Source: Geodermatophilus telluris
GTDB taxonomy: Bacteria > Actinomycetota > Actinomycetes > Mycobacteriales > Geodermatophilaceae
NCBI RefSeq assembly: GCF_900102745.1
Contig: NZ_FMZF01000003.1
Coordinates: 186,001-250,000 of the forward strand
Reading direction: 5' to 3'
Length of the DNA stretch: 64,000 bases
Positions 15,546 through 60,421 of the stretch are shown here, piece by piece. Below the pieces are notes generated by a model. It saw only the letters and a list, made by a program, of their open reading frames with translations. It made no database searches and was not told the origin of the DNA. The translations under genes and the position numbers were made by a program. The first letter of the stretch is position 1. Each line of letters starts with the position of its first letter.

Positions 15546-15609
15546 GGAACGGCCCCCTCGCAGGGCCCCGCCGCGAGCGTGCGAGCGGTGGGGTGCGAGG
15601 GGGTCCTTC
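15546..15609 (-). repeat. Stop-adjacent hairpin repeat, copy 1 (after the sugar permease)
   Basis: On the minus strand this begins with GGAAGGACC one base after the permease stop and ends with GGCCGTTCC. The inner arms CCCCTCGC and GCGAGGGG pair, and a second arm pair (CCCC to GGGG, then CGCTCG to CGAGCG) lies inside. It is one of seven such elements in the window. Confidence 0.7.
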
Positions 15610-15610
15610 C

Positions 15611-16897
15611 TCAGTGGCCGGTGGCCGCCGCCCGCCGCCGGGCCAGCGCGTCGACGCTGGCGGCCAGCAGCAGCACGCCGCCGGTGATGATGAAGTTCAG
15701 GTACGCCTCGGTGCCCAGCAGGCCGAGTCCGTTGGCGATGATCGCCACCACCAGGCCGCCCAGGACGGCGTCTCGCACCCGTCCCCGGCCGCCGAAGAGG
15801 CTGGTGCCACCGATGACCGCGGCCCCCACGGCGTAGAGCAGCGTGTTGCCGCCGCCGGACCCCGGCGCCACCGAGCCGAGCCGGGCGGCCGCGACGATGC
15901 CGCTGATCGCCGCCAGGGTCGAGCCGATGACGAACACGGCCACCCGGATCCGGGTGACGTTGATGCCGGCGCGCCGGGCCGCCTCGGCGTTGCCGCCGAC
16001 CGCGTACACGTGCCGCCCGAAGCTGGTGCGGCCGAGCACGAAGGTGAGCAGCAGCAGCAGGAGGACGACCAGCGGGATCGCGTAGGGGATGCCGGCGAGG
16101 ACCACGCCGACGGCCGGCGCCCGGTCGACGCTCAGCACCGCCGTCACCAGGACGACGACGGCCGCGATGACGCCGATGCGCACCAGCACCACGGCGAGCG
16201 GGGCGTGGGCGAGGCCCCGCGCCTTCTGCACGCGGAACCGGTTGAGCTGCAGCGCGGCGTACACGGCGATGGTGAGCAGCGCGAGGACCCAGCCGAGGGC
16301 GACCGGCACGTTCTTGTCGCTGATCGCCGAGATCACCGGGTCGCGCACCGGCACGGTGCCGCCCTCGCCGATGAGCCGCAGCGTGAAGCCCTGCCAGCCC
16401 AGGAACAGCGCGAGGGTGACCACGAACGACGGGATGCCGACCATCCCGACCAGGCTGCCGGTGAACAACCCGATCACCACGCCGGTGACGATGGCGGCCA
16501 GCACCGAGACGTACCAGGGCGCGCCGGCGTCGGCGAGCAGCTTGGCCATGACCGCGGCGCAGACGCCGCTGACCACACCGGCGGACAGGTCGATCTCGCC
16601 CAGCAGCAGGATGAAGACCAGCCCCATCGCCAGGATGATGATCGGCGCCGCCTGGTCGGCCAGGTTGGCCATGTTGCGCGGGGTCAGGAAGGTCTCCGGC
16701 CGCAGCGCGAAGAACAGCAGGCCGAGGACGACGATGCCGAGGATGGCCGGCAGGGCGCCGAGGTCCCCGCCCCGGACCCGGTCGACGTAGGCCCGGACCG
16801 TCGCGCCGAAGGAGTCCGCGCTGCGGTCGGCCTCGAAGCCGGACGGGGCGCCGCCCGGCTCCTGCGCGCTGGTGGGGGTGGACAGCGTGCTCGACAT
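15611..16897 (-). CDS. Sugar ABC transporter permease (CUT2/XylH type)
   Basis: A 428-residue permease of the BPD_transp_2 family with about twelve hydrophobic helices after a 50-residue polar N-terminus. Family motifs are GEIDLSAG, a VGGNAEAARRAGI loop for coupling to the ATPase, and the GTSLFGGRGRV motif near the C-terminus. The length exceeds the usual 330 residues of RbsC and fits XylH-like proteins with extra helices. It starts two bases after the ATPase stop. The substrate is probably a pentose or similar monosaccharide; it is not shown by the sequence. Confidence 0.88.
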   Translation of the reverse strand: MSSTLSTPTSAQEPGGAPSGFEADRSADSFGATVRAYVDRVRGGDLGALPAILGIVVLGLLFFALRPETFLTPRNMANLADQAAPIIILAMGLVFILLLGEIDLSAGVVSGVCAAVMAKLLADAGAPWYVSVLAAIVTGVVIGLFTGSLVGMVGIPSFVVTLALFLGWQGFTLRLIGEGGTVPVRDPVISAISDKNVPVALGWVLALLTIAVYAALQLNRFRVQKARGLAHAPLAVVLVRIGVIAAVVVLVTAVLSVDRAPAVGVVLAGIPYAIPLVVLLLLLLTFVLGRTSFGRHVYAVGGNAEAARRAGINVTRIRVAVFVIGSTLAAISGIVAAARLGSVAPGSGGGNTLLYAVGAAVIGGTSLFGGRGRVRDAVLGGLVVAIIANGLGLLGTEAYLNFIITGGVLLLAASVDALARRRAAATGH

Positions 16898-16899
16898 GC

Positions 16900-17706
16900 T
16901 CAGACCTCCACCGCTGCGGCGTCGGCGGGTGCGATGCCCAGGTTGCCCGAGCGGCCCGCCGTGATGAGCTCGATGACCTGCGGACGGTCGACCTGGGAGA
17001 TCGGGACGTCGGCCGCCATCCGCCCCAGGTAGAGGGCCGCGATCCGGTCGGACACCTCGAAGACGTCGACCATGTTGTGGCTGATGAAGACCACCGCGTG
17101 CCCGGTGTCGGCGAGCCGCCGGACCAGGTCGAGGACCTGCCGGGTCTGCGCGACGCCGAGGGCCGCGGTCGGCTCGTCGAGGACGACCAGCTTGGACTCC
17201 CAGAGCACGGCCTTGGCGATGGCGACCGTCTGCCGCTGACCGCCGGAGAGGCTGGAGACGAGCTGGCGCACCGACTTCAGGGTCCGGACGGAGAGCTTGC
17301 TCAGGGTGTCCCGGGCCGCCTCCTCCATCGACGTCTCGTCGAGGAGGATGCCGTTCTTGCGCTCGCGGCCGAGGAACATGTTCTGGACGACGTCGAGGTT
17401 GTCGGCCAGGGCGAGGTCCTGGTAGACGATCTCGATGCCGAGCGCGGCGGCCTCGCGCGGGCCGCCGACGGTGACCGGCTTGCCCTCGAAGAGGAACTCG
17501 CCGGAGTCGATCGCGTGGATGCCGGCGATGGACTTGATGAGCGTGGACTTGCCCGCCCCGTTGTCACCGACCAGCGCGGTGACCTGGCCGGGGTAGACCT
17601 TCATGTGCACGTCGTGCAGGACCTGGATGGCGCCGAAGCTCTTGTTGACGCCGCGGAGCTCCAGGGTGGGGGTGCCGTCCTCGGGACGGTCGGTGGGTGC
17701 GGACAC
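16900..17706 (-). CDS. Sugar ABC transporter ATP-binding protein
   Basis: A 268-residue single ABC domain. Walker A is GDNGAGKST (about residues 47-55), the Q-loop is VYQDLALADNL, the signature is SSLSGGQRQ, Walker B is LVVLDEPTAALG and the switch histidine is in FISHNM. Classical CUT2 ATPases such as RbsA are duplicated and about 500 residues long; this half-size form is common with XylH-like permeases. The GTG at 17706 has GAGAGG at the right distance. It is the middle gene of the binding protein - ATPase - permease operon. Confidence 0.9.
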   Translation of the reverse strand: MSAPTDRPEDGTPTLELRGVNKSFGAIQVLHDVHMKVYPGQVTALVGDNGAGKSTLIKSIAGIHAIDSGEFLFEGKPVTVGGPREAAALGIEIVYQDLALADNLDVVQNMFLGRERKNGILLDETSMEEAARDTLSKLSVRTLKSVRQLVSSLSGGQRQTVAIAKAVLWESKLVVLDEPTAALGVAQTRQVLDLVRRLADTGHAVVFISHNMVDVFEVSDRIAALYLGRMAADVPISQVDRPQVIELITAGRSGNLGIAPADAAAVEV

Positions 17707-17808
17707 GCCGGGCCTCTCGGTCGAGCTGGGTGGGGCGGGGTGGAGCGGGAACAGGGCGGCGGCAGCCGCCGGGGCGCCCATCATCGGCGCCCCGGCGGCT
17801 GCTGACCA

Positions 17809-18918: not shown

Positions 18919-18970
18919 GGGGGTCCACCGTTCTGTCGGGAATGCGCAGAAGTGCGGCGGTCAGGATGCG

Positions 18971-19149: not shown

Positions 19150-19168
19150 CGATCCCCGCGGAGGTCCT

Positions 19169-22470: not shown

Positions 22471-22500
22471 GCGGCGCACTCCCCCGGAGGCGCACGGATG

Positions 22501-35544: not shown

Positions 35545-36438
35545 TCAGGAGCCGGCGCGGCGCAGGTCGGCGCGGACCCTCCGGGCGAGGGTCTCGGTGG
35601 CCTTGAGGTTGCCCCGCCCGCCGAGCGCGGCACCGACGAGCAGCGGTGCCGCCGACCCGACGTTGCGCAGCATCCGGCGGGACAGCCGGCGCCGCAGCGC
35701 CCGGAAGCCCGCCGTCCCCAGCACCGCGCCGACGCCCTGCTGCGTGGTGCCCTCCACGGAGCGCTGCTGGGTCCAGCTGGACAGGTAGGCCAGGGCCCGG
35801 TCGCGGGGGTCGCCGGGCGCCGGGCGGCCGGCCAGCTCGTGCAGCTCGCCGAGGAGCACCACCTCGACCGCGGCCACGAGCAGCGTCTCGGCACCGAGCT
35901 CCAGCGGCAGGGCGACCAGCGACGGCGGGGCGAACCAGTGGGCGGCCGACAGGCCGCCGGTGGCCGCGCCGACGGCGGCCGTGACCCGGGAGGCCCGGGT
36001 GACGAGGGCGTCGGCGATCTCCTCGTCGCTGCGCCCGGGGTGCGCGGCCCGCAGCCGCGCGGCGTCGCGGATGGGCAGCCGGGGGGCCGCGGCGGCGAGC
36101 AGGTCGCCGAGGACGGTGCCCGGCGAGCGGCTCTCGTCGTCGGCCGCGGCGGGCGCGTCACCGCGGCGGGTGGCCGCCGAGGCGACCGCGCCGAGGACGT
36201 CGCGCAGCGTGCCGGCGGCCGAGCGCCGCTCGCCGTCGGGCGCGGCGTCGTCCGGCGCGCTGCCGAGCAGGCCGGCCACGGCGTCGGCGACGGCGCGGGC
36301 CGCCCGGCCCAGGCCGGAGTCCTCGGCCAGCCAGGCCGGCCCGCCCGCCGCGGCGTCCCCCGCCGTGACGGCGGGCTGCACCGGCCGCGGCGGCGGGACG
36401 TCCCGCGGTGCGGCCCTGCGGTCCCCGTGCTCGCTCAT
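35545..36438 (-). CDS. Hypothetical protein with hydrophobic segments
   Basis: A 297-residue protein that I cannot assign to a named family. Two moderately hydrophobic segments ([38 protein letters not shown]) lie in the middle and the ends are Ala/Arg-rich and acidic. It may associate with the membrane. Genes of this type occur upstream of dut in related Actinobacteria as far as I can recall. The ATG at 36438 has AGGAGG before it. No function is proposed. Confidence 0.65.
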
Positions 36439-36462
36439 CGCCTGTCCTCCTGGTGGGTCACT

Positions 36463-36621
36463 GGAGCGGCCCCGCTGCAGGGGCCCGCGCCGAGCGTGGT
36501 GACGTGCTGGAACGGCCCCCTCGCAGGGCCCCGCCACCGAGCCTGGTGACGTGCTGGAACGGCCCCGCTGCAGGGGCCCGCGCCGAGCGTCAGCGAGGCG
36601 TGGGGGGCAGCGGGGTCCTTC
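36463..36621 (-). repeat. Stop-adjacent hairpin repeat, copy 2, with a triplicated arm
   Basis: The minus-strand reading starts AGAAGGACCCC just after the DUF4193 stop. The outer arm unit, starting GGAGCGGCC or GGAACGGCC, is repeated three times at 36463, 36509 and 36556 (46-47-base period) with only one right arm at 36601-36621. The GCCCCGCTGC and GCAGCGGGG parts pair. This looks like a copy expanded by tandem duplication. Confidence 0.7.
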
Positions 36622-36622
36622 T

Positions 36623-36925
36623 TCAGGCGGCGCAGTCGCGGCAGTAGAGCTGGTCGCCCTTGGTCGCGGCCAGCCGGCTGCGGTGCTGGACCAGGAAGCA
36701 GCGCGAGCAGGTGAACTCGTCCTCCTGCTTGGGCAGCACGCGGACGGTCAGCTCCTCGTTGGACAGGTCCGCACCGGGCAGCTCGAGGCTCTCGTTGAAG
36801 TCGGTCTCGTCGACGTCGACCGAGGCGGACTGCGCCTCGGCGCGCCGCGCCTTGAGCTCCTCGAGGGAGTCCTCGCCGAGCTCGTCGGCCTCGTTGCGGC
36901 GCGGGGCGTCGTAGTCGGTGGCCAT
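36623..36925 (-). CDS. DUF4193 domain-containing protein (zinc-ribbon-like)
   Basis: A 100-residue protein of the actinobacterial DUF4193 family, found near ppgK and sigA. It starts MATDYDAPRR, has acidic helices, and ends with a likely zinc site (FTCSRCFLV ... LYCRDCAA). The ATG has GGAGGAGGGG upstream. The homologues are of unknown function. The 297 bases upstream to the next gene show nothing coding. Confidence 0.87.
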   Translation of the reverse strand: MATDYDAPRRNEADELGEDSLEELKARRAEAQSASVDVDETDFNESLELPGADLSNEELTVRVLPKQEDEFTCSRCFLVQHRSRLAATKGDQLYCRDCAA

Positions 36926-37222
36926 GGGGTGTGCCCCTCCTCCGGGGTTCTCGCGGGCGGAACGCGCCCGCATCGTGCGACGGCGGCGAGGAGCGCCACC
37001 GTCCGGTCCGGCCGCCGGGGCGGCCGTGGGTTCCGGGACCGGCGTCCGCTCCCGGCGACCCCCCGTGGTCGGCCGGGTGCGGGACCGGCAGCCCCCCAAC
37101 GCCGTGCGGCCCCGGTTTGTGCCCGCCCGCGCGCGGGCGACACGCGGAGTCGCGGTGGGCTCCGCGACGGGGTCCGGACGGGCCGGTGGGGAGGCGGAGT
37201 GCCGGAGGTTACCCTGCGCCCC

Positions 37223-38269
37223 GTGTCGAGTCCCGTGGGTGCCGATCCCGCCGTCGTCGGCCCGTACCTCGCCTCCGTCCTGGGCGACGACCGCTGGCGG
37301 GAGGTGACCGTCGAGCTCATCGCCGCCGGCATGTCCAACCTCACCTACGTGGTGACGCCGGCCGGGGGGACGCCGGAGGAGTCGGTGATCCTGCGCCGCC
37401 CGCCGACGGGCGCGGTGCTCGCCACGGCGCACGACATGGCACGGGAGCACCGCGTGATCAGCGCGCTCGGCGGGACCCCCGTCCCGGTGCCGCGGACGCT
37501 GCACATGTGCACCGACACCGCCGTCCTCGGCGCTCCCTTCTACGTCATGGAGCGGGTGTTCGGCCTGCACGTCGTCGACCGCATCCCGGCGGGGTACGCC
37601 GACGAGCCGGCCCAGCGCCGCGCGATCGGCGAGGGGCTCATCGACGTGCTGGCCGACCTGCACGCCGTCGACCCCGGGGCCGTGGGCCTGGGCGACTTCG
37701 GCCGGCCGGAGGGCTTCATGGCCCGCCAGGTGCGCCGGTGGACGCAGCAGTGGGAGGCCACCCGCGACCGCGACCGCCCCGGTCTCGACGCCCTCGCCGC
37801 CCGGCTGGCCGAGACCGTCCCGGCGAGCCAGCGGACCGGGATCGTGCACGGCGACTTCCGGCTGGACAACTGCCTGCTCGACCCCGACCGGCCCGGCGGC
37901 GTCCGCGCGGTCCTGGACTGGGAGATGTCGACGCTCGGCGACCCGCTGGCCGACCTCGGGATGCTGCACGTCTACTGGCCCGAGGCCGGCGAGCCGAGCG
38001 TCGCCGGGCAGAGCACGGTCACCGCCCTCGAGGGCTTCCCCAGCCGCGCCGAGGTCGCGGCGCGCTACGCCGAGCGCAGCGGCCTCGACCTGGCCGACCT
38101 GCACTGGTACGTCGGGTTCGCCTACTTCAAGTTCGCCGCGATCGTGGCCGGCATCGTCGCCCGCTCGGCCGCCGGCGCGATGGCCGGCAAGGACACCGCC
38201 GGGTACGCCGACCGGATCGACCCGTGCGTCGAGCGGGGACGCGCCGCACTCGACGACGGTGTCCTCTGA
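37223..38269 (+). CDS. Phosphotransferase family protein (ACAD10/11 N-terminal-like)
   Basis: A 348-residue aminoglycoside-phosphotransferase-fold kinase. The catalytic loop is GIVHGDFRLDNCLLD and the metal loop VLDWEMSTLGDPLADLG. A nucleotide-binding part with ESVILRRPPTG is N-terminal. It resembles the kinase domain of ACAD10/11, which phosphorylates 4-hydroxyacyl-CoA; that function is inferred. The GTG at 37223 is seven bases after TACCCT (37210-37215), the leaderless pattern. The frame is open further upstream. Confidence 0.82.
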   Translation: MSSPVGADPAVVGPYLASVLGDDRWREVTVELIAAGMSNLTYVVTPAGGTPEESVILRRPPTGAVLATAHDMAREHRVISALGGTPVPVPRTLHMCTDTAVLGAPFYVMERVFGLHVVDRIPAGYADEPAQRRAIGEGLIDVLADLHAVDPGAVGLGDFGRPEGFMARQVRRWTQQWEATRDRDRPGLDALAARLAETVPASQRTGIVHGDFRLDNCLLDPDRPGGVRAVLDWEMSTLGDPLADLGMLHVYWPEAGEPSVAGQSTVTALEGFPSRAEVAARYAERSGLDLADLHWYVGFAYFKFAAIVAGIVARSAAGAMAGKDTAGYADRIDPCVERGRAALDDGVL

Positions 38270-38339
38270 GGCCCGCGGCCGACCGTAGGATCCGCGCGAC
38301 CCGGCGAGACCTGCCGGGCCGCCGGCGAGGAGGACGACC

Positions 38340-38876
38340 GTGAGCGTGGCAAGCGAGACGCCCCCGGTGCGCCCCCGGAAGGACCGCCGGCTGATCCCGC
38401 CGCTGGTCTTCCTGCTCGTGCTCGCGCTCGCCGCGCTCGGCGTGTGGTGGAAGGTGCTCTCCGACGCCAGCGCCCGGGAGGAGGCCACCGACGCCGCCTG
38501 CGCGACCGCCGAGGCCGCCCCGCCGTCGCTGGACCCCTCGACGCTGTCGGTGCGCGTCTTCAACGCCACCGACACCGCGGGCCTGGCCCAGACCGTGGCC
38601 GGGGAGCTGCAGCAGCGCGGGTTCGTCGTCGACGAGGTCGCCAACGACCCGAGCGGCCGCGAGGTCACCGGCCCCGGTGAGGTGCGCTTCGGCCCGGCCG
38701 GCCGCGACGCGGCCGCCTACCTGGCCCTGTTCCTCCCGGGCTCGGGCAGCTACCAGGACACCCGGGCCGACGCGCGCGTCGACCTGGTGATCGGCCCGGA
38801 CTTCCAGCGGCTGGCCTCGCCCGAGGAGGTCGCGGCCACCCTCACCCCCATCGCCAGCGCCGAGGCCGCCTGCTGA
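38340..38876 (+). CDS. LytR C-terminal domain membrane protein
   Basis: A 178-residue protein with a basic cytoplasmic lead, a single membrane helix (IPPLVFLLVLALAALGVWW, about residues 19-37) and an extracytoplasmic LytR_C domain (LSVRVFNATDTAGLAQTVAG, residues about 65-165). LytR_C domains lie on or near cell-wall polymer transferases; here the transferase part is absent. GTG start with GAGGAGGA. It ends in front of a hairpin repeat and is convergent with suhB. Confidence 0.8.
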   Translation: MSVASETPPVRPRKDRRLIPPLVFLLVLALAALGVWWKVLSDASAREEATDAACATAEAAPPSLDPSTLSVRVFNATDTAGLAQTVAGELQQRGFVVDEVANDPSGREVTGPGEVRFGPAGRDAAAYLALFLPGSGSYQDTRADARVDLVIGPDFQRLASPEEVAATLTPIASAEAAC

Positions 38877-38934
38877 CGGCCCCCTCGCAGGGGCCCGCCG
38901 CGAGCGTGCGAGCGGTGGGGGCGAGGGGGTCCTC
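38877..38934 (-). repeat. Stop-adjacent hairpin repeat, copy 3 (after suhB)
   Basis: Read on the minus strand, GAGGACCCCCTCGCC follows the suhB stop and pairs with GGCGAGGGGG-like sequence near 38880. An inner CGCTCG/CGAGCG part is shared with copies 1 and 5. It directly touches the LytR_C gene stop on the other strand. Confidence 0.65.
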
Positions 38935-39744
38935 TCAGTGGAGGCGGTCGAGGAGGGCGAGGAACGGCTCCGCCACCGTCTCCGGGACGGCGACGGCCAT
39001 CGGCTCGGCGAACGGCCGGCCGGGCAGGCCGGTGACGACCAGTCCCGCCTCGGCGGCCACCAGCGCACCGGCCGCGTGGTCCCACGGCTTGAGGTCGAGC
39101 TCGTAGTAGGCGTCCACCCGCCCGGCGGCCACCGAGCACAGGTCGAGGGAGGCGCAGCCCTGGCGGCGGATGTCGCGCACCTCCGTCAGCAGCTGCGCCA
39201 CGACCGCGCCCTGCGCCCGCCGCTGCTCCACCCGGTAGCCGAAGCCGGTGGCCACCAGCGTCTGGCCGAGGGAACCCGGCCGGTTCCCCGTGAGCCGCCG
39301 CGGTCCGGGGTCGGCCGGCGTGGACAGGAAGGCCCCGCCGCCGGCGGTCGCGGTGAACAGCTCGCCGGTGGGCACGTCGAGCACCGCCCCGGCCACCGTG
39401 GCGCCGTCCACCTGGGCGGCGATGGAGACCGCGTAGCCGCGCAGGCCGTAGAGGAAGTTCACCGTCCCGTCGATCGGGTCGACCACCCACCGCACGCCGC
39501 TGGTGCCCTGCCGGTCGGCGCCCTCCTCGCCGAGCAGCCCGTCGTCGGGCCGCGCGGTGAGCAGCCGCTCGGTGATCAGCCGCTCGGTGGCGGTGTCGAC
39601 GGCGGTGACGACGTCGGTGGGGCTGGACTTGACGTCGACGGCGGCCGCGGCCGACCCGCGCTCGCGGGCGACCAGGGCGGCCGCCTCCCGGGCGGTGGCG
39701 ACCGCGAGGTCGAGCAGGGCGGCGGACGGGGGCAGGGCACTCAC
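38935..39744 (-). CDS. suhB: Inositol monophosphatase family protein
   Basis: A 269-residue metal-dependent phosphatase of the SuhB/IMPase family. Metal ligands are in the GEEGA and DPIDGTVNFLYG motifs and the C-terminal LKPWDHAAGALVAAEAG. It dephosphorylates inositol 1-phosphate, a step toward phosphatidylinositol and mycothiol in Actinobacteria, or related sugar phosphates. The position next to ppgK and sigA matches M. tuberculosis suhB-ppgK-sigA. GTG at 39744; the longer frame gives no extra homology. Confidence 0.88.
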   Translation of the reverse strand: MSALPPSAALLDLAVATAREAAALVARERGSAAAAVDVKSSPTDVVTAVDTATERLITERLLTARPDDGLLGEEGADRQGTSGVRWVVDPIDGTVNFLYGLRGYAVSIAAQVDGATVAGAVLDVPTGELFTATAGGGAFLSTPADPGPRRLTGNRPGSLGQTLVATGFGYRVEQRRAQGAVVAQLLTEVRDIRRQGCASLDLCSVAAGRVDAYYELDLKPWDHAAGALVAAEAGLVVTGLPGRPFAEPMAVAVPETVAEPFLALLDRLH

Positions 39745-39805
39745 CCGGGCGATCCTGCCCGAGCGGCCGCCCCACCGTGCGGCGCCGGTCACTAGGGTGA
39801 CCGCC

Positions 39806-40552
<747 letters not shown>

Positions 40553-40619
40553 AGGAGGACCCTCCTGCCCCCCGGGCCGGCAAACGCTCGGCGCGGGCCC
40601 CTGCAGGAGGGCCGTTCCC
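40553..40619 (+). repeat. Stop-adjacent hairpin repeat, copy 4 (after ppgK)
   Basis: AGGAGGACCCTCCTGCCCC directly follows the ppgK stop, and GCAGGAGGGCCGTTCCC closes the stem near 40602-40619, with the CTCCTGC/GCAGGAG arms perfectly paired. It probably ends the ppgK transcript before the sigA promoter. Confidence 0.7.
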
Positions 40620-40694
40620 GGCGCGACGACGCGTCGGTCACCCTGCGGAGGGACCGGCTGACCTGGGGTGGTGTGGCAGCCCGTCCGGGCGAGC

Positions 40695-40738
40695 ACCACC
40701 GCGATGGCGGTGGTCACACTCCGTTCCGCCGCTACAAT
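40695..40738 (+). promoter_or_regulatory. Probable sigA promoter with an inverted repeat over the -35
   Basis: TACAAT (40733-40738) is a good -10 element. The -35 is weak (TGGTCA, 40711-40716, 16-base spacing) and overlaps a perfect 8-base inverted repeat ACCACCGC-GATG-GCGGTGGT (40695-40714), which could be an operator. The sigA leader would be about 165 bases. The 355-base gap also contains repeat copy 4; no gene is seen. Confidence 0.55.
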
Positions 40739-40907
40739 GGAGGAGCCCCAGCACGTCGCCACCCAGCCGGGAGTCATCCCCCGCCCGCGCCGCGGTCAAA
40801 CCCCGCGCCGGACCGGCGGCACTCCCCGCTCCGTGGTCACCGACCGGGGCCGCTGCCCGGAGCTCCACCCGCTCCCGGGGACGCACCCAGCACGGGAAGG
40901 AACCTGA

Positions 40908-42269
<1,362 letters not shown>

Positions 42270-42270
42270 C

Positions 42271-42334
42271 AGAAGGACCTCGCTGCCCCACACCGCTCGC
42301 ACGCTCGCGGCGGGCCCCTGCAGCGAGGCCGGCC
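42271..42334 (+). repeat. Stop-adjacent hairpin repeat, copy 5 (after sigA)
   Basis: AGAAGGACCTCGCTGCCCC begins one base after the sigA stop, and GCAGCGAGGCCGGCC closes it (42320-42334). The arms TCGCTGC/GCAGCGA pair, as do the inner CGCTCG/CGAGCG-type parts. Together with the hairpin at 42347 it makes a double terminator for sigA. Confidence 0.7.
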
Positions 42335-42346
42335 TCTCAGCTCGCT

Positions 42347-42378
42347 GACGGCCCCCGACCTGCGGGTCGGGGGCCGTC
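42347..42378 (+). terminator. Strong hairpin downstream of sigA
   Basis: GACGGCCCCCGACC (42347-42360) pairs perfectly over 14 bases with GGTCGGGGGCCGTC (42365-42378) around a TGCG loop, 78 bases after the sigA stop. Confidence 0.75.
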
Positions 42379-42768
42379 CGCCGTCCGGGTGACCCCCGGG
42401 TGCCCGTCGTGTCGCGGCCAGGTGTCGTCCCGGTCGCGCTGAGGTCACGATCTCACCCGCCCGGGCGGGCGGCGCGGTGTACGACGGCAGCGGCCGGGTA
42501 GACGGCGTAGCGTGGAGGACGTCGAGACAGCAGCGGACCCACGAGCCGGAGACCTGCCGGCGCACGGAACGACCAGCACCACCCAGACACACCGTTACCA
42601 CCCAGTGACGTCCCTGCTGACCCCCACCCACCCGCCCCACCGGTCACCCGCCCCCCATCCCGGGCGAGTCGGCCGACGGATCGGGAGGAACGGGAACACC
42701 GGGGCTCATCCTGGCGCTGTGCAGGAGGCCGATCCGCAGCCGCGGGTCCGTGCGGTAGAGAGCGAGTG
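42379..42768. other. 390-base gap without a gene upstream of DUF7455
   Basis: After the sigA terminator this stretch has no gene I can support; the frames in it are low-complexity. TAGCGT at 42508-42513 could be a -10 element for a long leader of the DUF7455 gene. A C-rich section (about 42580-42665) contains CCCACCCGCCCCACC-type runs. No riboswitch motif was recognised. Confidence 0.4.
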
Positions 42769-42993
42769 ATGACCCAGATGACCCAGACGCTGACGACGAC
42801 CCCCGCCGCCGACGACCTGGTCGTGCCCTTCCACTGCGACCGGTGCGGCGCGCTGGCCAAGGTGCGTGTCGTGCTCGCCAGCGGCAGCGACCTCGTCTTC
42901 TGCGGGCACCACGCTCGCGAGTACGAGTCCAAGCTCCGTGACATCGCCGTCGACATCATCGAGACGGACGGCGAGCAGCACCTCGCACGCTGA
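42769..42993 (+). CDS. Small zinc-ribbon-like protein (DUF7455 type)
   Basis: A 74-residue protein found near sigA in many Actinobacteria. Two cysteine pairs or Cys/His groups, FHCDRCGALAKV and LVFCGHHAREY, form a probable zinc site with a short helix following. The ATG at 42769 was chosen; a GTG one codon earlier is equally possible, and GAGAGCGAG precedes both. The function is unknown. Confidence 0.8.
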   Translation: MTQMTQTLTTTPAADDLVVPFHCDRCGALAKVRVVLASGSDLVFCGHHAREYESKLRDIAVDIIETDGEQHLAR

Positions 42994-43019
42994 GAGAGGC
43001 GCTATCGTCGCTCCCTGCG

Positions 43020-45440
43020 ATGAAGCCCTCACCCGACGACGCCGCCGGCGTCCCCGTTCCGCCTGACGCGGACGGGGAGCCGGCGGCTCCGTCGTTGTCG
43101 GGGACCCCCGGTCGACACGAGGACCCCGAGATGCCGCAGCACCCCGCCCCGCCCGCGCCCGCCCCGGACACCGCCGTTCCCGGCGAGCTCTCCGACGACA
43201 CCCGCCCGGTCCCCCGGGACCGCGGTCCCGTCGGTCCCGACGCGCCGCCTCCGCCGGCGGTGCCGGCCGTCCCGTCCACGGCGCCGGAGGCCCCGGGCAC
43301 CGCCGCCGAGGCGCCGCGGGTCGCGCCCACGGCCGGCGACACGCCCGGACCGGACGGCAGCCCGTCACCGGCCCCGGCACCCGACCCGGCACACGGCACC
43401 GTGGCGCTCCCCGACGGCCCGGTGGACGCGCACCCCACCGAGCCCGTCCCCACCGAGGCCGTCCCCGCGGACGCGACGGCGCGCCTCGACCCGGCCGCCA
43501 CGCCGCCCGCGGCGCCCGGCGCCCCCGCGGTCCCGCCGTCCCCCCGCACGGACGGTCCGGGAGACACCGCCGGCCCGGGAGACACCGCCGGCCCGGGAGA
43601 CACCGCCGGCCCGGCAGGTGGCGACGGCCCCCGGCGCCGCGGCTGGCGGCGGCCGGCCGTCCTCGCGCCCGTGGCGGTGCTCGCCGCGCTCGGCGTCGCC
43701 TACGGGGTCGACCTGCTGGTCGCCGGCGACCACGTCCCGCGCAACACCGTGGTGGCCGGGGTCGACATCGGTGGCCTCTCGCCCGCGGCGGCCGCCGAGC
43801 GGCTCGAGGAGGACCTGGCGCCCCGGGTGACCGCCGACCACGTGGTCGTGGCCGACGACGTCGAGACCACCCTCTCCCCCGCCACCGCCGGCCTCACCCT
43901 GGACGTCGAGGGCACCGTCGACGCCGCCGACGACCAGCCGCTCAACCCCTGGACGCGCCTGGTGTCGCTGGTCAGCGAGCGCCGGGTCACGCCGGTCATC
44001 ACCGGCGAGGAGACCTCGCTGACCGCGCAGGTCGACACCATCGCGACCCAGGTCGACCGCGTGCCGGTGGACGCCTCCATCGCCGTCGAGGGGACCACCC
44101 CGACGCTGGTCGAGCCGGTCGACGGCCGCACCCTCGACCGGGAGGGCGCCGCCGAGGCGATCACCGCCGCCCTGGCCGCCGGCGGGGACCCCGCCACCCC
44201 GATCGAGCTGCCGGTGGAGGTCCTCCCGGTGCGGGTCGGCACCGAGGAGGCCGAGCGGGTCCTCGAGGAGACCGTCACCCCCGCCCTCGCCGCGCCGGTG
44301 ACCGTGCGCAGCCAGGACGGCGCGGCCTCCGTCGACGTCCCGGTGGAGGCGATCGCCGCCTCGCTGACGTTCACCCCCGAGGACAGCGGCGAGCTCACCG
44401 TCGGCGTCGACCCCGCGGCACTGCAGACGGCGATGGGTGAGGACTTCACCGCGTTCGGCACCCCCGCGCAGGACGCCCGCTTCGAGATCGCCGGCGGCAG
44501 CGTCCGGGTCGTGCCCTCGGTGGACGGGACCGGTGTGGACCCGGCCGTGCTCTCCACCGAGCTGCTGGCGGTGCTGCCCGACCCCGCGCCGCGCACGGTG
44601 ACCGCCGAGCTCGGCCCGGTGCCCGCCGAGCTGACCACGCAGGAGGCCGAGGCCCTCGGGATCCGCGAGGAGGTCAGCTCGTTCACGACCACCACGGGCA
44701 ACAGCGCCAGCGGCACCAACATCCGCGTGGTGGCCGAGGAGGTCGACGGCGCGCTCGTGCTGCCCGGTGAGACCTTCAGCCTGAACACCTTCACCGGCCC
44801 CCGCGGGACCGCGCAGGGCTACGTGCCCGCCAACGTGATCAGCGGCGGCGCCCTGTCCACCGCGGTCGGCGGCGGCATCAGCCAGTTCGCCACGACGATG
44901 TTCAACGCGGTGTTCTTCGCCGGGCTCGAGGACGTTTACCACAAGCCGCACAGCTTCTACATCAGCCGCTACCCGGCCGGGCGCGAGGCCACGGTGTACG
45001 AGGGCCAGATCGACCTGCAGTGGCGCAACGACACCGAGACCGGCATCTACGTCGACACCCAGTGGACGCCGGGCGCCTCCGGCGGGTCGGTCACCGTGAC
45101 CTTCTACGGCACGCGCTACTACGAGGTGGAGGCCGTCGAGGGGCCGCGGCGCAACGTCCGCGAGCCCGCCGTGCAGGACAAGGTGGACGACGGCACCTGC
45201 ATCTCCCAGGGCGGCGCCCAGGGCTTCGACATCACGGTGACCCGCGTCTTCCGCGACCTGCAGACCGGCGCCGAGGTGCGGCGGGAGTCCTTCGACACCC
45301 GTTACGCCGCCGAGGCGGTCATCCGCTGCGTCCCGCCGCAGCCGGACCCGGCCGCACCGGTGCCCGCCCCGGAGGGCGCCCCGCCGCCGGCCGCGCCGTC
45401 GGCTCCCGGCCGCCGGCCGGGGCACCGCCGGACCCGCTGA
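43020..45440 (+). CDS. VanW family protein with peptidoglycan-binding-like repeats
   Basis: An 806-residue protein. Residues 1 to about 205 are low-complexity Pro/Ala/Asp-rich, including a three-fold GPGDTA repeat. A membrane anchor follows (VLAPVAVLAALGVAYGVDLL, about 219-238). The external part has PG_binding_4-type repeats (AGVDIGGLSPAAAAERLEED and later), then a VanW domain around TTTTGNSASGTNIRV, VLPGETFSLNTFTG and ISQFATTMFNAVFFAGL. VanW proteins occur in glycopeptide-resistance loci, but most actinobacterial copies are chromosomal cell-wall-linked proteins of unknown role; no van genes are nearby. Confidence 0.88.
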   Translation: MKPSPDDAAGVPVPPDADGEPAAPSLSGTPGRHEDPEMPQHPAPPAPAPDTAVPGELSDDTRPVPRDRGPVGPDAPPPPAVPAVPSTAPEAPGTAAEAPRVAPTAGDTPGPDGSPSPAPAPDPAHGTVALPDGPVDAHPTEPVPTEAVPADATARLDPAATPPAAPGAPAVPPSPRTDGPGDTAGPGDTAGPGDTAGPAGGDGPRRRGWRRPAVLAPVAVLAALGVAYGVDLLVAGDHVPRNTVVAGVDIGGLSPAAAAERLEEDLAPRVTADHVVVADDVETTLSPATAGLTLDVEGTVDAADDQPLNPWTRLVSLVSERRVTPVITGEETSLTAQVDTIATQVDRVPVDASIAVEGTTPTLVEPVDGRTLDREGAAEAITAALAAGGDPATPIELPVEVLPVRVGTEEAERVLEETVTPALAAPVTVRSQDGAASVDVPVEAIAASLTFTPEDSGELTVGVDPAALQTAMGEDFTAFGTPAQDARFEIAGGSVRVVPSVDGTGVDPAVLSTELLAVLPDPAPRTVTAELGPVPAELTTQEAEALGIREEVSSFTTTTGNSASGTNIRVVAEEVDGALVLPGETFSLNTFTGPRGTAQGYVPANVISGGALSTAVGGGISQFATTMFNAVFFAGLEDVYHKPHSFYISRYPAGREATVYEGQIDLQWRNDTETGIYVDTQWTPGASGGSVTVTFYGTRYYEVEAVEGPRRNVREPAVQDKVDDGTCISQGGAQGFDITVTRVFRDLQTGAEVRRESFDTRYAAEAVIRCVPPQPDPAAPVPAPEGAPPPAAPSAPGRRPGHRRTR
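43554..43607 (+). repeat. Three tandem 18-base units in the VanW gene
   Basis: Three units of GGNCCGGGAGACACCGCC (43554, 43572, 43590) encode GPGDTA three times in the disordered N-terminal segment. They are in frame and near-identical, as expected of a recent slippage-prone microsatellite-like tract. Confidence 0.85.
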
Positions 45441-45523
45441 GCACCTCGCCCGACCGGGCGACGACGGGCGTCCCCGGCCGCGCGGCCCGGCGGGCGCCCG
45501 CGTCGGGCGTGCACACTGGGCCG

Positions 45524-46600
45524 GTGAGCACCGTGCGGGCCGGCGGGCCGCCCCGCGCGGACGGGGCGGCCGGTCAGCCCACCGACGGCCCGCCGGCCCC
45601 GGTCGTGACCGCCTCGGGGGCGAGCCGCGCCGACGTCCCGCCGCCCGGACGCCTCGACCACTGGCCGGCCGTGGTCCGCGTGCCGCTGCAGGTGCTCGGC
45701 CGCACGGTGGCCAAGGCGTGGCAGGACCGCATCCTGGGGCTGTCCGGCGAGGCGGCGTTCTGGCAGATCCTGTCGGTGCCGCCGCTGCTGATCGCCCTGC
45801 TGGGCTCGCTGGGCTTCCTCGGCGACTGGATCGGCGCGGCGGCGGTGCAGACCGTCGAGGACACCCTGGTCGACGCCTCCAGCCAGGTGGTGACCGCCGA
45901 CGTCGTCGACTCGCTGGTCCGGCCCACCCTCAACGACATCCTGACCTCGGGCCGGCTGGACGTGGTCAGCCTGGGCTTCCTGCTCACCCTGTGGGCCGGG
46001 TCGTCGGCGACCGCGACGTTCATGAACACGATCGTCATCGCCTACGACCAGCGCGACGTCCGCGGCCCGATCCGCACCCGGCTGATGGCGCTGGGACTGT
46101 TCGTCGTGGGCCTGGTGCTCGCGGTGCTCATGCTGCCGCTGCTGGTGCTCGGGCCCGGCCTGCTCGTCGCGGTGCTGCCGCAGGACTGGCAGGGCACCGC
46201 CACGGTGCTGATCAACGCGGTGTACGTGCCGCTCGTCGTCGTCGGCCTGGTGCTGGCGCTCACGAGCTTCTACCACGTGATCCTGCCCCGGCGGCTGCCC
46301 TGGCACCGGCACCTGCTGGGCACGGTGCTGGCCGTCGGGTTCTTCGTCGTGGCGGCGACCGTGCTGCGGCTCTACGTCTCCGACATCCTGGTCGCCGCGC
46401 TGCCCTACGGGGCGCTGGCCACCCCCATAGCGGCGCTGCTGTTCCTGTTCTTCTTCGGCATGGCGGTGCTGCTGGGCGCCGAGCTCAACGCCGCCGTGCA
46501 GGAGCGCTGGCCCGCGCCGCTGCGCCGGCACACCCGGCGGGCCCAGCGCCGCCGGGCCGCTGAGCTGCAGGCCGAGGCGAAGCGCCTCGGCCTCGGGTGA
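45524..46600 (+). CDS. YihY/virulence factor BrkB family membrane protein
   Basis: A 358-residue membrane protein of the YihY/BrkB family, with six hydrophobic helices from about residue 85 to 335. Family marks are the ILGLSGEAAFWQILSVPPLLIALLG start, a LLTLWAGSSATATFMNTI stretch and the FFGMAVLLGAELNAAVQER end. A 50-residue Pro/Ala-rich leader precedes. Members are often misannotated as RNase BN; the role here is unknown, possibly envelope related. GTG start at 45524, 83 bases after VanW. Confidence 0.87.
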   Translation: MSTVRAGGPPRADGAAGQPTDGPPAPVVTASGASRADVPPPGRLDHWPAVVRVPLQVLGRTVAKAWQDRILGLSGEAAFWQILSVPPLLIALLGSLGFLGDWIGAAAVQTVEDTLVDASSQVVTADVVDSLVRPTLNDILTSGRLDVVSLGFLLTLWAGSSATATFMNTIVIAYDQRDVRGPIRTRLMALGLFVVGLVLAVLMLPLLVLGPGLLVAVLPQDWQGTATVLINAVYVPLVVVGLVLALTSFYHVILPRRLPWHRHLLGTVLAVGFFVVAATVLRLYVSDILVAALPYGALATPIAALLFLFFFGMAVLLGAELNAAVQERWPAPLRRHTRRAQRRRAAELQAEAKRLGLG

Positions 46601-46614
46601 GGCGGTGAGGCGCT

Positions 46615-46678
46615 GGAACGGCCTCCCTGCAGGGCCCCGCTGCGAGCGGAGCGAGTGGTGGGGGGCAGGGAGGTCCTT
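46615..46678 (-). repeat. Stop-adjacent hairpin repeat, copy 6 (after DUF3039)
   Basis: Minus-strand reading: AAGGACCTCCCTGCCCC follows the DUF3039 stop, and GCAGGGAGGCCGTTCC closes the stem. The arms TCCCTGC/GCAGGGA are perfectly paired. It separates the convergent YihY and DUF3039 genes. Confidence 0.7.
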
Positions 46679-46906
46679 CTACTCGCGGAGCTGCTCGTAG
46701 ACCTCCTTGCAGGCCGGGCAGACCGGGCTGCCGGGCTTGGGGCTCTTGGTCACCGGGAACACCTCGCCGCACAGCGCCTCGACCAGCGTGCCCATGACCG
46801 CGCTCTCGGCGATCTTGTCCTTCTTGACGTAGTGGAAGACCTCGTTGGCGTTGCCGGTGTCGCTGTCGCGGACGTCGGGCTTCTCGAGGAGGTCGGAACT
46901 GCTCAC
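46679..46906 (-). CDS. DUF3039 domain-containing protein
   Basis: A 75-residue actinobacterial protein. The conserved core is FHYVKKDKIAESAVMGTLVE, then a small Cys site (EALCGEVF, SPVCPACKEVYEQL) that may bind metal. The GTG at 46906 has GGGAGAG upstream. DUF3039 genes are frequently near the psuG/PfkB or helicase genes in Actinobacteria; the function is unknown. Confidence 0.85.
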   Translation of the reverse strand: MSSSDLLEKPDVRDSDTGNANEVFHYVKKDKIAESAVMGTLVEALCGEVFPVTKSPKPGSPVCPACKEVYEQLRE

Positions 46907-46997
46907 GGGCTCTCCCAGGGTCGGGTCCAGGTGGCGGCGGGGGCGCGGCGCCGAGGGAGGAGCCGGACGCTCCCCGCCCACCGACCATGATGGCAGG

Positions 46998-47948
46998 GTG
47001 TCCGTCGAACCCACCTCCACCGGCCGCCACGCCGTCGGCTCCCCGCTGCGCCTCTCCCCCGAGGTCGACGAGGCGCTGACCGCCGGTGCCCCCGTCGTCG
47101 CGCTCGAGAGCACGCTGCTGGCCCACGGCCTCCCCCGGCCGGACAACCGCGCGGCCGCCGACGACGTCGAGGCCGCGGTGCGGGCCGGTGGTGCCGTGCC
47201 GGCGACCGTCGCGGTGCTCGACGGCGTCCCGCACGTGGGCCTGACCGCCGAGCAGGTCGACCGGGTGTGCCGCGACCCGGACCTGGCCAAGCTCGGCGTC
47301 CGCGACCTGCCGGTGGCCGCCGCGCTGGGCCTGTCGGGCGCCACCACCGTCTCCAGCACCGCGCTGCTGGCCGCCGCCGCCGGGATCGGCGTGTTCGCCA
47401 CCGGCGGGCTGGGCGGGGTGCACCGCCAGTCGGCCGAGACCTTCGACGAGTCGGCCGACCTCACCGCGCTCTCGCGGACCTCGCTGGCCGTCGTCTGCGC
47501 GGGCGTGAAGTCCATCCTCGACGTCCCGGCGACGCTGGAGCGGATGGAGAGCCTGTCGGTGACCGTCGTCGGCTACCGCACCCGCACCTTCCCCGGCTTC
47601 TACGTGGCCGACTCGGGCTCACCGGTCGAGTGGTCGGTCGACTCGCCCGAGCAGGCCGCCGCGGTGCTCGCCGCCCGGCGCGAGCTGGCACCCGGCGCCG
47701 TCGTCGTGGCCAACCCCCTGCCGGCCGACGAGCAGCTCGACCCGGCGCTGCACGACCGGGTCATCGCCGATGCGCTGGCCGCCGCCGAGGCCGCCGGGGT
47801 GCGCGGCAAGGCGGTGACGCCGTTCGTGCTCGACCACCTGCACCGGGCCAGCGAGGGCGCCACGCTCGCGGTCAACGTGCGCCTCGTGCTGCGCAACGCC
47901 GAGCTCGCGGGGCGGATCGCCGCCGCGCTCGCCGGGCAGGCGCGCTGA
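46998..47948 (+). CDS. psuG: Pseudouridine-5'-phosphate glycosidase
   Basis: A 316-residue PsuG that splits pseudouridine 5'-phosphate into uracil and ribose 5-phosphate. Motifs are VVALESTLLAHGLPRPDN, AVLDGVPHVGLT, the VFATGGLGGVHR block, VVCAGVKSILDVPATLE and the C-terminal AVTPFVLDHLH. The GTG at 46998 gives the usual length, with CATGAT six bases before it as a possible leaderless -10. It is coupled to the PfkB kinase gene, as expected for pseudouridine breakdown, where PsuK first phosphorylates the nucleoside. Confidence 0.93.
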   Translation: MSVEPTSTGRHAVGSPLRLSPEVDEALTAGAPVVALESTLLAHGLPRPDNRAAADDVEAAVRAGGAVPATVAVLDGVPHVGLTAEQVDRVCRDPDLAKLGVRDLPVAAALGLSGATTVSSTALLAAAAGIGVFATGGLGGVHRQSAETFDESADLTALSRTSLAVVCAGVKSILDVPATLERMESLSVTVVGYRTRTFPGFYVADSGSPVEWSVDSPEQAAAVLAARRELAPGAVVVANPLPADEQLDPALHDRVIADALAAAEAAGVRGKAVTPFVLDHLHRASEGATLAVNVRLVLRNAELAGRIAAALAGQAR

Positions 47949-58242: not shown

Positions 58243-58262
58243 GCGGCGGGCCCGCCCGCCGC
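58243..58262. terminator. Short palindromic hairpin between convergent genes
   Basis: GCGGCGGGC-CC-GCCCGCCGC directly follows the CPBP stop and precedes the end of the convergent small gene. It is a likely bidirectional terminator, without a T-tract. Confidence 0.45.
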
Positions 58263-58272
58263 GCCGGAGGCC

Positions 58273-58605: not shown

Positions 58606-58702
58606 GCCGGGAGCATCCCAGCGCACCCCACGGGCGGGCAACGCGATCGCGCCCCCGGCCACCGCGGGGGTGGTCCCGCAGGGGATCGCGGAGGATGGGC
58701 CG

Positions 58703-59134: not shown

Positions 59135-59206
59135 CCCCGCGACCGGGTGGGTACCGATGGTGACCGAACACACCACCTGTGGTCCCGCTGTGAATCCCGG
59201 GGGTGT

Positions 59207-59232
59207 GGAACACGGTCCCCGTCGTGACCGTT
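59207..59232 (+). promoter_or_regulatory. Sigma-H/sigma-R-type promoter upstream of sigB
   Basis: GGAAC (59207-59211) is followed after exactly 18 bases by GTT (59230-59232), within CGTT. This matches the oxidative/thiol stress sigma consensus GGAAT/C-N18-GTT of actinobacterial SigR/SigH. It lies about 160 bases before the sigB start, which fits known sigB control by SigH and SigE in mycobacteria. The rest of the 236-base gap shows no gene. Confidence 0.6.
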
Positions 59233-59370
59233 GGACGGGGCGTAACACAACGGACCACAACGCACCACCCAGCGAGGTGCTCCGCCGGACACGGAGCCCC
59301 ACCCGTCCGGATGCCACCGCCCACCACACCGGCGGTGCATCCGGACCAGACGCAAGGACGAAGACAGACC

Positions 59371-60354
59371 GTGACGCTCCTCCAGTCTTCCCCCAGTGAC
59401 GCCCTCGAGGTCCGCGCGCCGCGCCGCGAGCCGGACACCAGTGGACTGGTGTCGACCGACCTGGTGCGCGTGTACCTCAACACCATCGGCAAGACCGCCC
59501 TGCTGACCGCCGAGCAGGAGGTCGAGCTCGCCAAGCGCATCGAGGCGGGCCTCTACGCCGAGCGGCTGCTCGGCGAGCGGCAGCTCACCCCGGCCGTCGC
59601 GCGCGACTACAAGGCCCTCGCGGCCGACGGCAAGGCGGCCAAGCGCCACCTGCTGGAGGCCAACCTCCGGCTGGTCGTGTCGGTGGCCAAGCGCTACACC
59701 GGCCACGGCATGACGTTCCTGGACCTCATCCAGGAGGGCAACGTCGGCCTCATCCGCGCCGTCGAGAAGTTCGACTACACCAAGGGCTTCAAGTTCTCGA
59801 CCTACGCGACGTGGTGGATCCGCCAGGCGATCACCCGCGCGATGGCCGACTCCGGCCGCACCATCCGGCTGCCCGTGCACCTGGCCGAGCAGGTCAACAA
59901 GGTCGTGCGGACCCGCCGCCGGGTGCACCAGGAGCTCGAGCGGGAGCCCACCGCCGAGGAGCTCGGCCTCGAGCTCGACATGACGCCCGAGCGGGTCACC
60001 GAGCTGCTCGAGTACTCCCGCGACCTGGTGTCGCTCGACCAGACCGTCGGCACCGACGAGGAGTCCCGCCTCGGTGACTTCATCGAGGACGCCGACGCCG
60101 CGGTGGCCGAGGACGCCGTCGCCTTCCAGATGATGAAGGGCGACGTGCGCACCGTCCTGTCCACGCTGGAGGACCGCGAGCGCGACGTGGTCGTGCTGCG
60201 GTTCGGTCTCGACGGCGGCCAGCCCCGCACGCTCGAGCAGATCGGCAAGCAGTTCGGTCTCTCCCGTGAGCGGGTCCGGCAGATCGAGCGCGAGACGATG
60301 GCGAAGCTGCGCGACCCGCAGCGCGCCGACGCCCTGCGCGACTACCTGGCCTGA
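59371..60354 (+). CDS. sigB: RNA polymerase sigma factor SigB (primary-like group 2)
   Basis: A 327-residue group 2 sigma factor, non-essential-type paralogue of SigA. It lacks SigA's long N-terminal extension but has regions 1.2-4.2: [38 protein letters not shown] and the 4.2 helix-turn-helix [20 protein letters not shown] ending LRDYLA. In related organisms it handles general stress and stationary phase. The GTG at 59371 was chosen; AAGGA is a weak ribosome binding site. A stop-adjacent hairpin repeat and a further terminator follow. Confidence 0.93.
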
Positions 60355-60355
60355 G

Positions 60356-60421
60356 CAAGGACCTCCTCGCCCCCCCGACCCCCGCTCCGCTCGGGTCGGG
60401 CCCCTGCGAGGAGGCCGTTCC
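60356..60421 (+). repeat. Stop-adjacent hairpin repeat, copy 7 (after sigB)
   Basis: CAAGGACCTCCTCGCCCC follows the sigB stop by one base, and GCGAGGAGGCCGTTCC closes the stem. The arms TCCTCGC/GCGAGGA pair perfectly; an inner CCGACCC/GGGTCGG pair also forms. Confidence 0.7.

What the first reader, a model, noticed from the sequence alone, without database searches (positions are those of the whole stretch)
15546..60421. Seven-copy hairpin repeat attached to stop codons
At 15546, 36463, 38877, 40553, 42271, 46615 and 60356 the same element occurs. In the direction of the preceding gene it reads (G)AAGGACC - variable stem - GCCCC - inner stem-loop - GGGGCCC - variable stem - GGCCGTTCC. The variable stem is CCCTCGC/GCGAGGG, CCGCTGC/GCAGCGG, CTCCTGC/GCAGGAG, TCGCTGC/GCAGCGA, TCCCTGC/GCAGGGA or TCCTCGC/GCGAGGA. 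The arms differ between copies but always match within a copy, so pairing is kept by selection or gene conversion. Every copy begins within a few bases of a stop codon (sugar permease, DUF4193, suhB, ppgK, sigA, DUF3039, sigB) with the same polarity. This suggests a dispersed terminator or 3'-end processing element.
Basis: partly seen in the sequence, partly recalled or inferred. Interest (0 to 1): 0.75.

Follow-up and report, generated by a model that had tools for sequence, protein, structure and literature searches.

The report
Mobile hairpin repeat behind stop codons
A hairpin-forming DNA repeat of about 58 letters has spread through genomes of one family of soil bacteria and mostly lies directly behind the stop signals of genes; it looks like a mobile element of unknown means of movement rather than the transcription terminator it was taken for.

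Summary
The seven copies are real; all start 0-3 nt behind a same-strand stop codon. They belong to a dispersed family: 142 model matches in this Geodermatophilus genome (150 candidates scored), 48 of 57 genomes of the family, and one weak match in 295 other class genomes drawn (18 candidates scored each). Of the 142, 94 begin -2 to +3 nt from a same-strand stop (window null: 0.3% of all positions, 2.8% of intergenic starts); so do 39 of 47 assessable copies in named species. Arms take 21 perfect sequences; 98 of 118 copies pair perfectly over 5 nt (9.4 if shuffled).

The terminator reading is weakened: at sigA, sigB and the permease gene another hairpin lies downstream, and congeners examined without the element keep one. 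Orthologous sites are filled in some species, empty in others; copies nest and form arrays; the ppgK copy has different, self-matching arms in three species. I read it as a REP/MIRU-like miniature mobile element, but not a canonical REP: no Y1 transposase match in 57 of 57 genomes, GTAG in front of 4 of 142 copies. What moves it, why it sits at stop codons and any host function remain unknown.

The parts
15551..15608 (-). element copy 1 (core), behind the permease gene; arms CCCTCGC/GCGAGGG; tail GTTCCCACACGTCACC continues to 15535
   Evidence: stop of gene 15611-16897(-) 2 nt upstream
15498..15529 (-). separate downstream hairpin (terminator-like by shape), also in G355, which lacks the element
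   Evidence: C5:201551 against G355
36561..36620 (-). element copy 2 (complete), behind DUF4193; arms CCGCTGC/GCAGCGG
36463..36560 (-). two further tandem right-half units with tail (right arms at 36468-36486 and 36514-36532)
38878..38934 (-). element copy 3, filling the gap between two convergent predicted stop codons (38876 and 38935)
40555..40613 (+). element copy 4, behind polyphosphate glucokinase; the orthologous copy has other arms in G355 and G046 and holds a nested copy there
42273..42330 (+). element copy 5, behind sigA
42347..42378 (+). separate hairpin downstream of the element behind sigA (terminator-like by shape)
   Evidence: sequence; a hairpin here also in G004, G023, G055, G353, G362, which show no element
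46620..46678 (-). element copy 6, behind DUF3039; with its tail (46602-46619) it fills the gap to the convergent predicted stop at 46600
   Evidence: element-free sites in G023 and G353
60357..60416 (+). element copy 7, behind sigB; GTTCC to 60421
   Evidence: no intact element in 7 of 7 congeners, two of which (G037, G354) have doubtful remnants
60430..60466 (+). separate hairpin downstream of the element behind sigB (terminator-like by shape)
   Evidence: sequence; a hairpin also in the 7 congeners without an intact element

Best explanation
The repeat is a miniature, non-coding mobile palindrome, found in this search only in Geodermatophilaceae apart from one weak match. Its unit is about 58 nt, (G)AAGGACC - variable arm - CCCC - inner stem-loop - GGGCCCC - matching arm - GGCC, with an optional 16-nt tail GTTCCAGCACGTCACC. 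It is gained and lost between species and mostly sits immediately behind stop codons in sense orientation, between the stop and the gene's own hairpin where there is one. INFERRED: that it moves as DNA by an unidentified enzyme supplied in trans; that the stop-codon placement reflects a target preference plus removal of damaging insertions; that arms are rewritten by conversion between copies followed by correction of one arm on the other inside the hairpin. A host effect, such as slowing ribosomes at the stop or shielding mRNA 3' ends, is possible but not needed to explain the pattern.
For: Copy number: 142 matches at E <= 0.01 in the own genome, 150 candidates scored; 48 of 57 family genomes, 97 candidates scored each; 2 of 296 class genomes, one the own genome, the other a single 45.8-bit match (18 candidates scored each); 61 of 61 pattern stretches in named genomes are Geodermatophilaceae. 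Anchoring: 94 of 142 within -2 to +3 nt of a same-strand stop and 1 at +4 to +20; null 0.3% and 2.8%; 39 of 47 in named species. Mobility: 33 of 58 elements given have at least one orthologous site at least 45 nt shorter, e.g. sigB GCCTGAGC^GACACC in G356 and DUF3039 GAGTGAGTCA in G023 and G353; composite copies L004 and L020, four-unit array in L006. Arms: 98 of 118 perfect over 5 nt, 21 types, shuffled mean 9.4, maximum 21; the orthologous ppgK copy has arms CTCCTGC (window), CCTCCGC (G355) and CGTCC (G046, 9 of 10 outer positions pairing). Separate hairpins at sigA, sigB and 15.5 kb occur without the element.
Against: No transposase or autonomous relative was found, and no dedicated search for one was possible. 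No clean target-site duplication was seen; most element-free sites also differ by a few nt, so exact ends are uncertain. One-sided arm changes exist as well (G355 against G046). Of 57 right-arm contexts 11 have no matching left arm, and one isolated right arm (C8:82078) has none within 10 kb. The stop-codon anchoring is strict and could reflect selection for a 3'-end function.
Confidence: 0.8

Rival explanations
1. The element is a dispersed transcription terminator or 3'-end processing signal kept by selection.
For: A strong hairpin (-33.1 to -40.5 kcal/mol, z -1.9 to -4.6) right behind stop codons; 51 of 142 copies lie between an upstream sense gene and a convergent gene, and 40 of 93 classified anchored copies face a convergent gene, more than the 152 of 507 gene ends; convergent gene ends with an element carry fewer other hairpins, 2 of 18 against 24 of 62.
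Against: Separate downstream hairpins at sigA, sigB and 15.5 kb, present in congeners without the element; 19 of 70 examined copies are followed by a perfect stem of at least 9 bp against 1.3 expected; DUF4193 sites without element in G023, G037, G360; in the three contigs anchored copies split 21 codirectional to 9 convergent, like gene ends there (355 to 152). No U-tract follows the window copies and the scan of 36300-47000 calls no terminator at them, but it also misses the sigA hairpin, so this weighs little.
Confidence: 0.12
2. The element is kept because a strong hairpin within 15 nt of the stop codon slows ribosomes or shields mRNA, tuning expression of the upstream gene, as reported for E. 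coli REPs.
For: 94 of 142 copies start -2 to +3 nt from the stop. [quoted passage not shown]
Against: Sites are filled in some congeners and element-free in others, also behind sigA and sigB; arm mismatches show no clear excess of sense-strand wobbles.
Confidence: 0.2
3. It is a canonical REP moved by a RAYT or another Y1 transposase.
For: Palindromic, high copy, next to gene 3' ends; PMC3733652 (section 15 read) reports that GTAG-REP termini often provide the TAG stop and that in two species most REPs between convergent ORFs lie within 20 bp of both ORF ends.
Against: PF01797 in 0 of 57 family genomes, although 5 of 14 control genomes ring; GTAG in front of 4 of 142 copies and CGTC of 0, their complements behind 0; about 58 nt rather than 20-40.
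Confidence: 0.05
4. It spreads by reverse transcription of mRNA 3' ends or by an IS110-type transposase.
For: Sense polarity behind stop codons would suit an RNA intermediate; the own genome has 2 RVT_1 and 1 IS110 matches.
Against: Of the 28 genomes with at least 90 element matches, 15 have no RVT_1 match and 10 no IS110 match; G046 has neither, nor Y1.
Confidence: 0.05

Closest known systems
REP / BIME / REPIN palindromes (GTAG and CGTC superfamilies)
   Same: High-copy dispersed palindromes near gene 3' ends, also between convergent genes; termini can supply the stop codon; some copies inside ORFs (PMC3733652 section 15).
   Different: Longer (about 58 nt, 76 with tail), two stems with a variable outer stem, other foot sequence, no PF01797 match in 57 of 57 family genomes, -2 to +3 nt spacing in 94 of 142.
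MIRU (mycobacterial interspersed repetitive units)
   Same: Short dispersed repeats of an actinobacterium, apparently mobile, placed so that insertion does little harm (PMC12548453, one passage seen). Tandem copies and polarity are recalled.
   Different: MIRUs insert at start codons and carry a coupled ORF (same passage); this element sits behind stop codons and is a strong palindrome.
Bacterial MITEs (RUP, Correia/NEMIS, YPAL/RU-2; ERIC recalled)
   Same: Small non-autonomous repeats; for YPAL recent mobility is inferred from empty and filled sites (PMC2229807 passages).
   Different: No TA dinucleotide at the ends, no clear target duplication, no related IS seen (not searched for), polarity relative to stop codons.
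Intrinsic transcription terminators
   Same: GC-rich hairpin behind a stop codon.
   Different: No U-tract (as with the other hairpins here), copies share sequence, sites come and go, other hairpins lie alongside.

Membership tests
REP (GTAG/CGTC, RAYT-associated) | more than 100 dispersed, mostly intergenic palindromic copies | tested here: met
   142 matches in the own genome; 11 of 142 inside predicted genes
REP (GTAG/CGTC, RAYT-associated) | GTAG or CGTC tag at one end | tested here: not met
   GTAG directly in front of 4 of 142 copies, CGTC of 0; CTAC/GACG directly behind 0 of 142
REP (GTAG/CGTC, RAYT-associated) | Y1 (RAYT) transposase in the genome | tested here: not met
   PF01797: 0 of 57 family genomes, controls 5 of 14
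REP (GTAG/CGTC, RAYT-associated) | 20-40 bp size | tested here: not met
   58-position model; 75-80 nt with tail region
MIRU | insertion at start codons with a coupled internal ORF | tested here: not met
   94 of 142 copies anchored to the stop of the upstream gene; internal ORFs were not examined
MITE | filled and empty orthologous sites | tested here: met
   33 of 58 elements given have a shorter orthologous site; a few of those hold a smaller element, and loci recur
MITE | terminal inverted repeats shared with an autonomous IS, target-site duplication | tested here: inconclusive
   Arms are inverted repeats but vary between copies; no duplication seen in the sigB pair; no dedicated IS search
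Intrinsic terminator | GC-rich hairpin | tested here: met
Intrinsic terminator | U-rich tract behind the stem | tested here: not met
   none behind the seven window copies; no call at the elements in 36300-47000. The sigA hairpin downstream is not called either
Intrinsic terminator | RNA 3' ends at the element | not testable with these tools
   no RNA data
Known RNA family (Rfam) | match above gathering score | tested here: not met
   0 matches in the window

The most novel reading that the evidence does not exclude
Geodermatophilaceae carry an undescribed mobilisation system, needing no Y1 transposase, RVT_1 reverse transcriptase or IS110 enzyme, that places palindromes directly behind stop codons in sense orientation, perhaps coupled to translation or transcription ending, and that rewrites both hairpin arms together at a fixed locus.
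Probability: 0.25. Interest if true: 0.8.

Novelty: new variant of a known kind. Interest (0 to 1): 0.55.

Why it matters
REP palindromes are commonly tied to RAYT transposases. Here is an abundant family with filled and empty sites between congeners but no Y1 transposase match in 57 genomes, so something else should move it. Its tight spacing and polarity behind stop codons give an unusually sharp insertion rule that can be tested. Orthologous copies whose two arms change together offer a natural system for studying hairpin-arm correction. In annotation, the element should not be taken for the terminator of sigA, sigB and other genes without RNA evidence.

Tried and rejected
Terminator as main role: set aside for the reasons above, left open for convergent gene ends. 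Rfam: no match in the window. RAYT/IS200 (PF01797): 0 of 57. Reverse transcriptase and IS110: present in 29 and 36 of 57 genomes but missing from many element-rich ones. Sense-RNA selection through wobble asymmetry: 6 sense against 10 antisense in the first nine pairs; pair 11 adds 5 sense wobbles. Built-in stop codon as the only cause of anchoring: not enough, since at sigB the element-free site of G356 already has TGAGC. For 39 non-anchored, non-tandem copies (one of four near-identical contexts kept) TAG/TGA at offsets -6, -5 and -3 occurs 8 times in 6 copies against about 1.2 expected; at the seven other offsets looked at 5 times against about 2.7: a weak hint of a DNA target motif. Autonomous transposon: 6 of 59 right-arm hits lie outside every model match; 3 belong to composite and 2 to tandem copies, and C8:82078 is an isolated right arm without a fitting left arm in 10 kb; no dedicated transposon search was made. 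In-frame coding insertion in an HNH-like gene: as I read L049 the flanks lie in different frames. Literature: (listings) showed no paper on such a repeat in Geodermatophilaceae; PMC9686282, opened for passages, mentions only CRISPR repeats; some searches were broader. Only this open-licence library was searched.

Rows dropped: A1 leaves out 8 right-arm contexts without a fitting left arm. One search was given 58 elements; 7 weak and 2 weak matches were left out, the same 2. One search used 118 of 142 copies (24 without GG.CC/GGCC ends). The 142 were found with a pairing model, which favours matched arms; the right-arm-only check gave a perfect left arm in 41, one mismatch in 5 and none in 11 of 57 contexts. 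Gene ends rest on my own codon-usage gene finder trained on the window.
Full report
WHAT IS THERE. The seven hairpins exist as described. Aligned with 23 further own-genome copies they give a 58-position unit with an outer stem of 11 pairs and an inner stem of 7; 96.3% of cells pair, 8 of 18 pairs show changes on both sides, and 56 cells carry double changes against 15.7 in shuffles, while the number of further pair types is not above shuffles. The 30 copies had been chosen for a left arm with at most one mismatch, with 8 contexts left out, so the share paired is inflated. Folding energies of the seven copies, four of them folded with tail letters, are -33.1 to -40.5 kcal/mol with z from -1.9 to -4.6. 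A covariance model finds 142 matches at E <= 0.01 in the own genome among 150 candidates scored, so the true number may be higher. In the 374-kb stretch of the relative G355, 20 matches at E <= 0.001 were found, of which 18 were used. The window, with 7 copies in 64 kb, is richer than that.

WHO HAS IT. 48 of 57 genomes of the family and 9 of 12 genera have matches (97 candidates scored per genome); among 296 genomes drawn from the class, only the own genome and one genome with a single 45.8-bit match (18 candidates scored per genome). A pattern scan of named genomes gave 61 stretches, all titled as Geodermatophilaceae: Geodermatophilus, Blastococcus, Modestobacter, Klenkia, Goekera and unclassified members. 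The window's genus is inferred to be Geodermatophilus because contigs of two congeners have the same lengths as named Geodermatophilus contigs.

WHERE IT SITS. With a codon-usage gene finder (64 genes in the window), 94 of 142 copies start -2 to +3 nt from the end of a same-strand gene: 49 at +2 (46 with TGA), 16 at 0 (13 with TAG), 15 at +3 (10 with TAG), 8 at -1, 5 at -2, 1 at +1; from +4 to +20 there is one. The other 47 include tandem and composite copies, copies inside predicted genes and copies near opposite-strand genes. Random positions in the window give 0.3%, intergenic starts 2.8%. In 47 assessable copies from named species, chosen by sequence alone, 39 are anchored: Geodermatophilus 22 of 28, Blastococcus 11 of 12, Modestobacter 4 of 4, Klenkia 1 of 1, unclassified 1 of 1, Goekera 0 of 1; 18 further matches were without a left arm and 4 lay too near a locus end. 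The mirror case, the 3' end at an opposite-strand stop, occurs 7 times in 142, 5 of them with the 5' end anchored too.

WHY NOT SIMPLY A TERMINATOR. At sigA (42347-42378), sigB (60430-60466) and the permease gene (15498-15529) a separate strong hairpin follows the element. At sigB none of the seven congeners seen has an intact element (G037 and G354 have doubtful remnants) and a hairpin follows in each; at sigA, G004, G023, G055, G353 and G362 show no element and have a hairpin, in some with another stem sequence; at the permease gene G355 lacks the element and has the hairpin, while G046 has another element there. Of 70 anchored copies with at least 40 nt of 3' region, 19 have a further perfect stem of 9 bp or more against 1.3 expected. 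Against this: these hairpins lack U-tracts too and are called terminator-like by shape; gene ends with an element have such hairpins less often than those without (6 of 40 against 57 of 210; convergent ends 2 of 18 against 24 of 62), although the groups differ in gap length; in the own genome 40 of 93 classified anchored copies face a convergent gene, more than the 152 of 507 gene ends in the three contigs, where anchored copies themselves split 21 to 9. A role between convergent genes is not excluded.

WHY MOBILE. Orthologous sites differ in state: 33 of 58 elements given have at least one congener whose site is at least 45 nt shorter. Several rows repeat the same locus (DUF3039 above all) and a few shorter sites hold a smaller element, so independent element-free sites are fewer. 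Clear cases: sigB, GCCTGAGC^GACACC in G356 against GCCTGAGC-element in the window; DUF3039, GAGTGAGTCA in G023 against an element in G037 with 97% identical flanks. Elements sit inside other elements (L004, L020, G355 ppgK) and in tandem (four 63-nt units in L006, three right halves in the window, five in Modestobacter lapidis L193).

THE ARMS. In 118 copies with standard ends the five variable positions are perfectly complementary in 98, with 21 different sequences; shuffling gives 9.4, at most 21. As the model favours pairing, I checked contexts found by the right arm alone: 41 of 57 perfect, 5 with one mismatch, 11 without a fitting left arm. At ppgK the orthologous outer element has three different self-matching arms in the window, G355 and G046 (in G046 at 9 of 10 positions), while the inner GGCAAACGCTCGGCGCGGG is identical between the window and G355. 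At C5:21016 one pair differs on both sides between the window's genome and G355. One-sided changes also occur (G355 against G046). Unpaired cells in the first nine pairs split into 6 sense wobbles, 10 antisense wobbles and 13 others; pair 11 adds 5 sense wobbles. This gives no clear sign that the sense RNA is what is selected. I infer arm correction at the DNA level; I did not test the mechanism.

WHAT MOVES IT. No PF01797 match in 57 of 57 genomes, while 5 of 14 control genomes ring. RVT_1 and IS110 matches are missing from 15 and 10 of the 28 genomes with at least 90 element matches. An isolated right arm at C8:82078 has no partner within 10 kb. The mover is unknown.

COMPARISON. By position and abundance this resembles a REP: PMC3733652 (section 15 read) reports REPs close to gene 3' ends, with GTAG termini often supplying the TAG stop, and PMC12306157 (passages seen) reports that REPs within 15 nt of a stop codon stall ribosomes. 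It fails the tag and transposase of the described REP superfamilies. MIRUs (PMC12548453, one passage seen) are the nearest actinobacterial analogue but go to start codons. I therefore file it as a new variant of the miniature mobile palindrome kind, with function open.

Noticed in passing
L019, L035, L055 and others; one match in the window: A second palindromic repeat, about GCGTCCCACCCGAC...GTCGGGTGGGACGC, seen in 10 distinct contexts of the fetched own-genome loci, several beside copies of the element.
   Followed up: partly
L047, L048, L049, L093 (C3:814885, C8:149558, C8:186198, C3:723854): Four copies share flanks; in L049 the antisense strand reads LVHWLDGGETNL, recalled as resembling HNH/DUF222 proteins (not tested by HMM), apparently a broken multicopy gene carrying the element.
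   Followed up: partly
G019, G039, G003: These genomes have only 1, 4 and 5 matches although other members of their genera have up to 97, 95 and 70; natural contrasts for finding the mobilising gene.
   Followed up: no
L006 around 1312-1560; L193 3807-4021: Tandem arrays: four right arms 63 bp apart in the own genome and five 45 bp apart in Modestobacter lapidis.
   Followed up: no
L004, L020, L042, L059 (C2:354900, C3:320758, C6:358971, C9:62168): Composite copies: an element inside the loop of another, with differing but matched outer arms; either repeated insertion at one spot or a copied composite.
   Followed up: partly
G000:C8:82078-82096 (L268): An isolated right arm without a fitting left arm in the 10-kb stretch.
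   Followed up: partly
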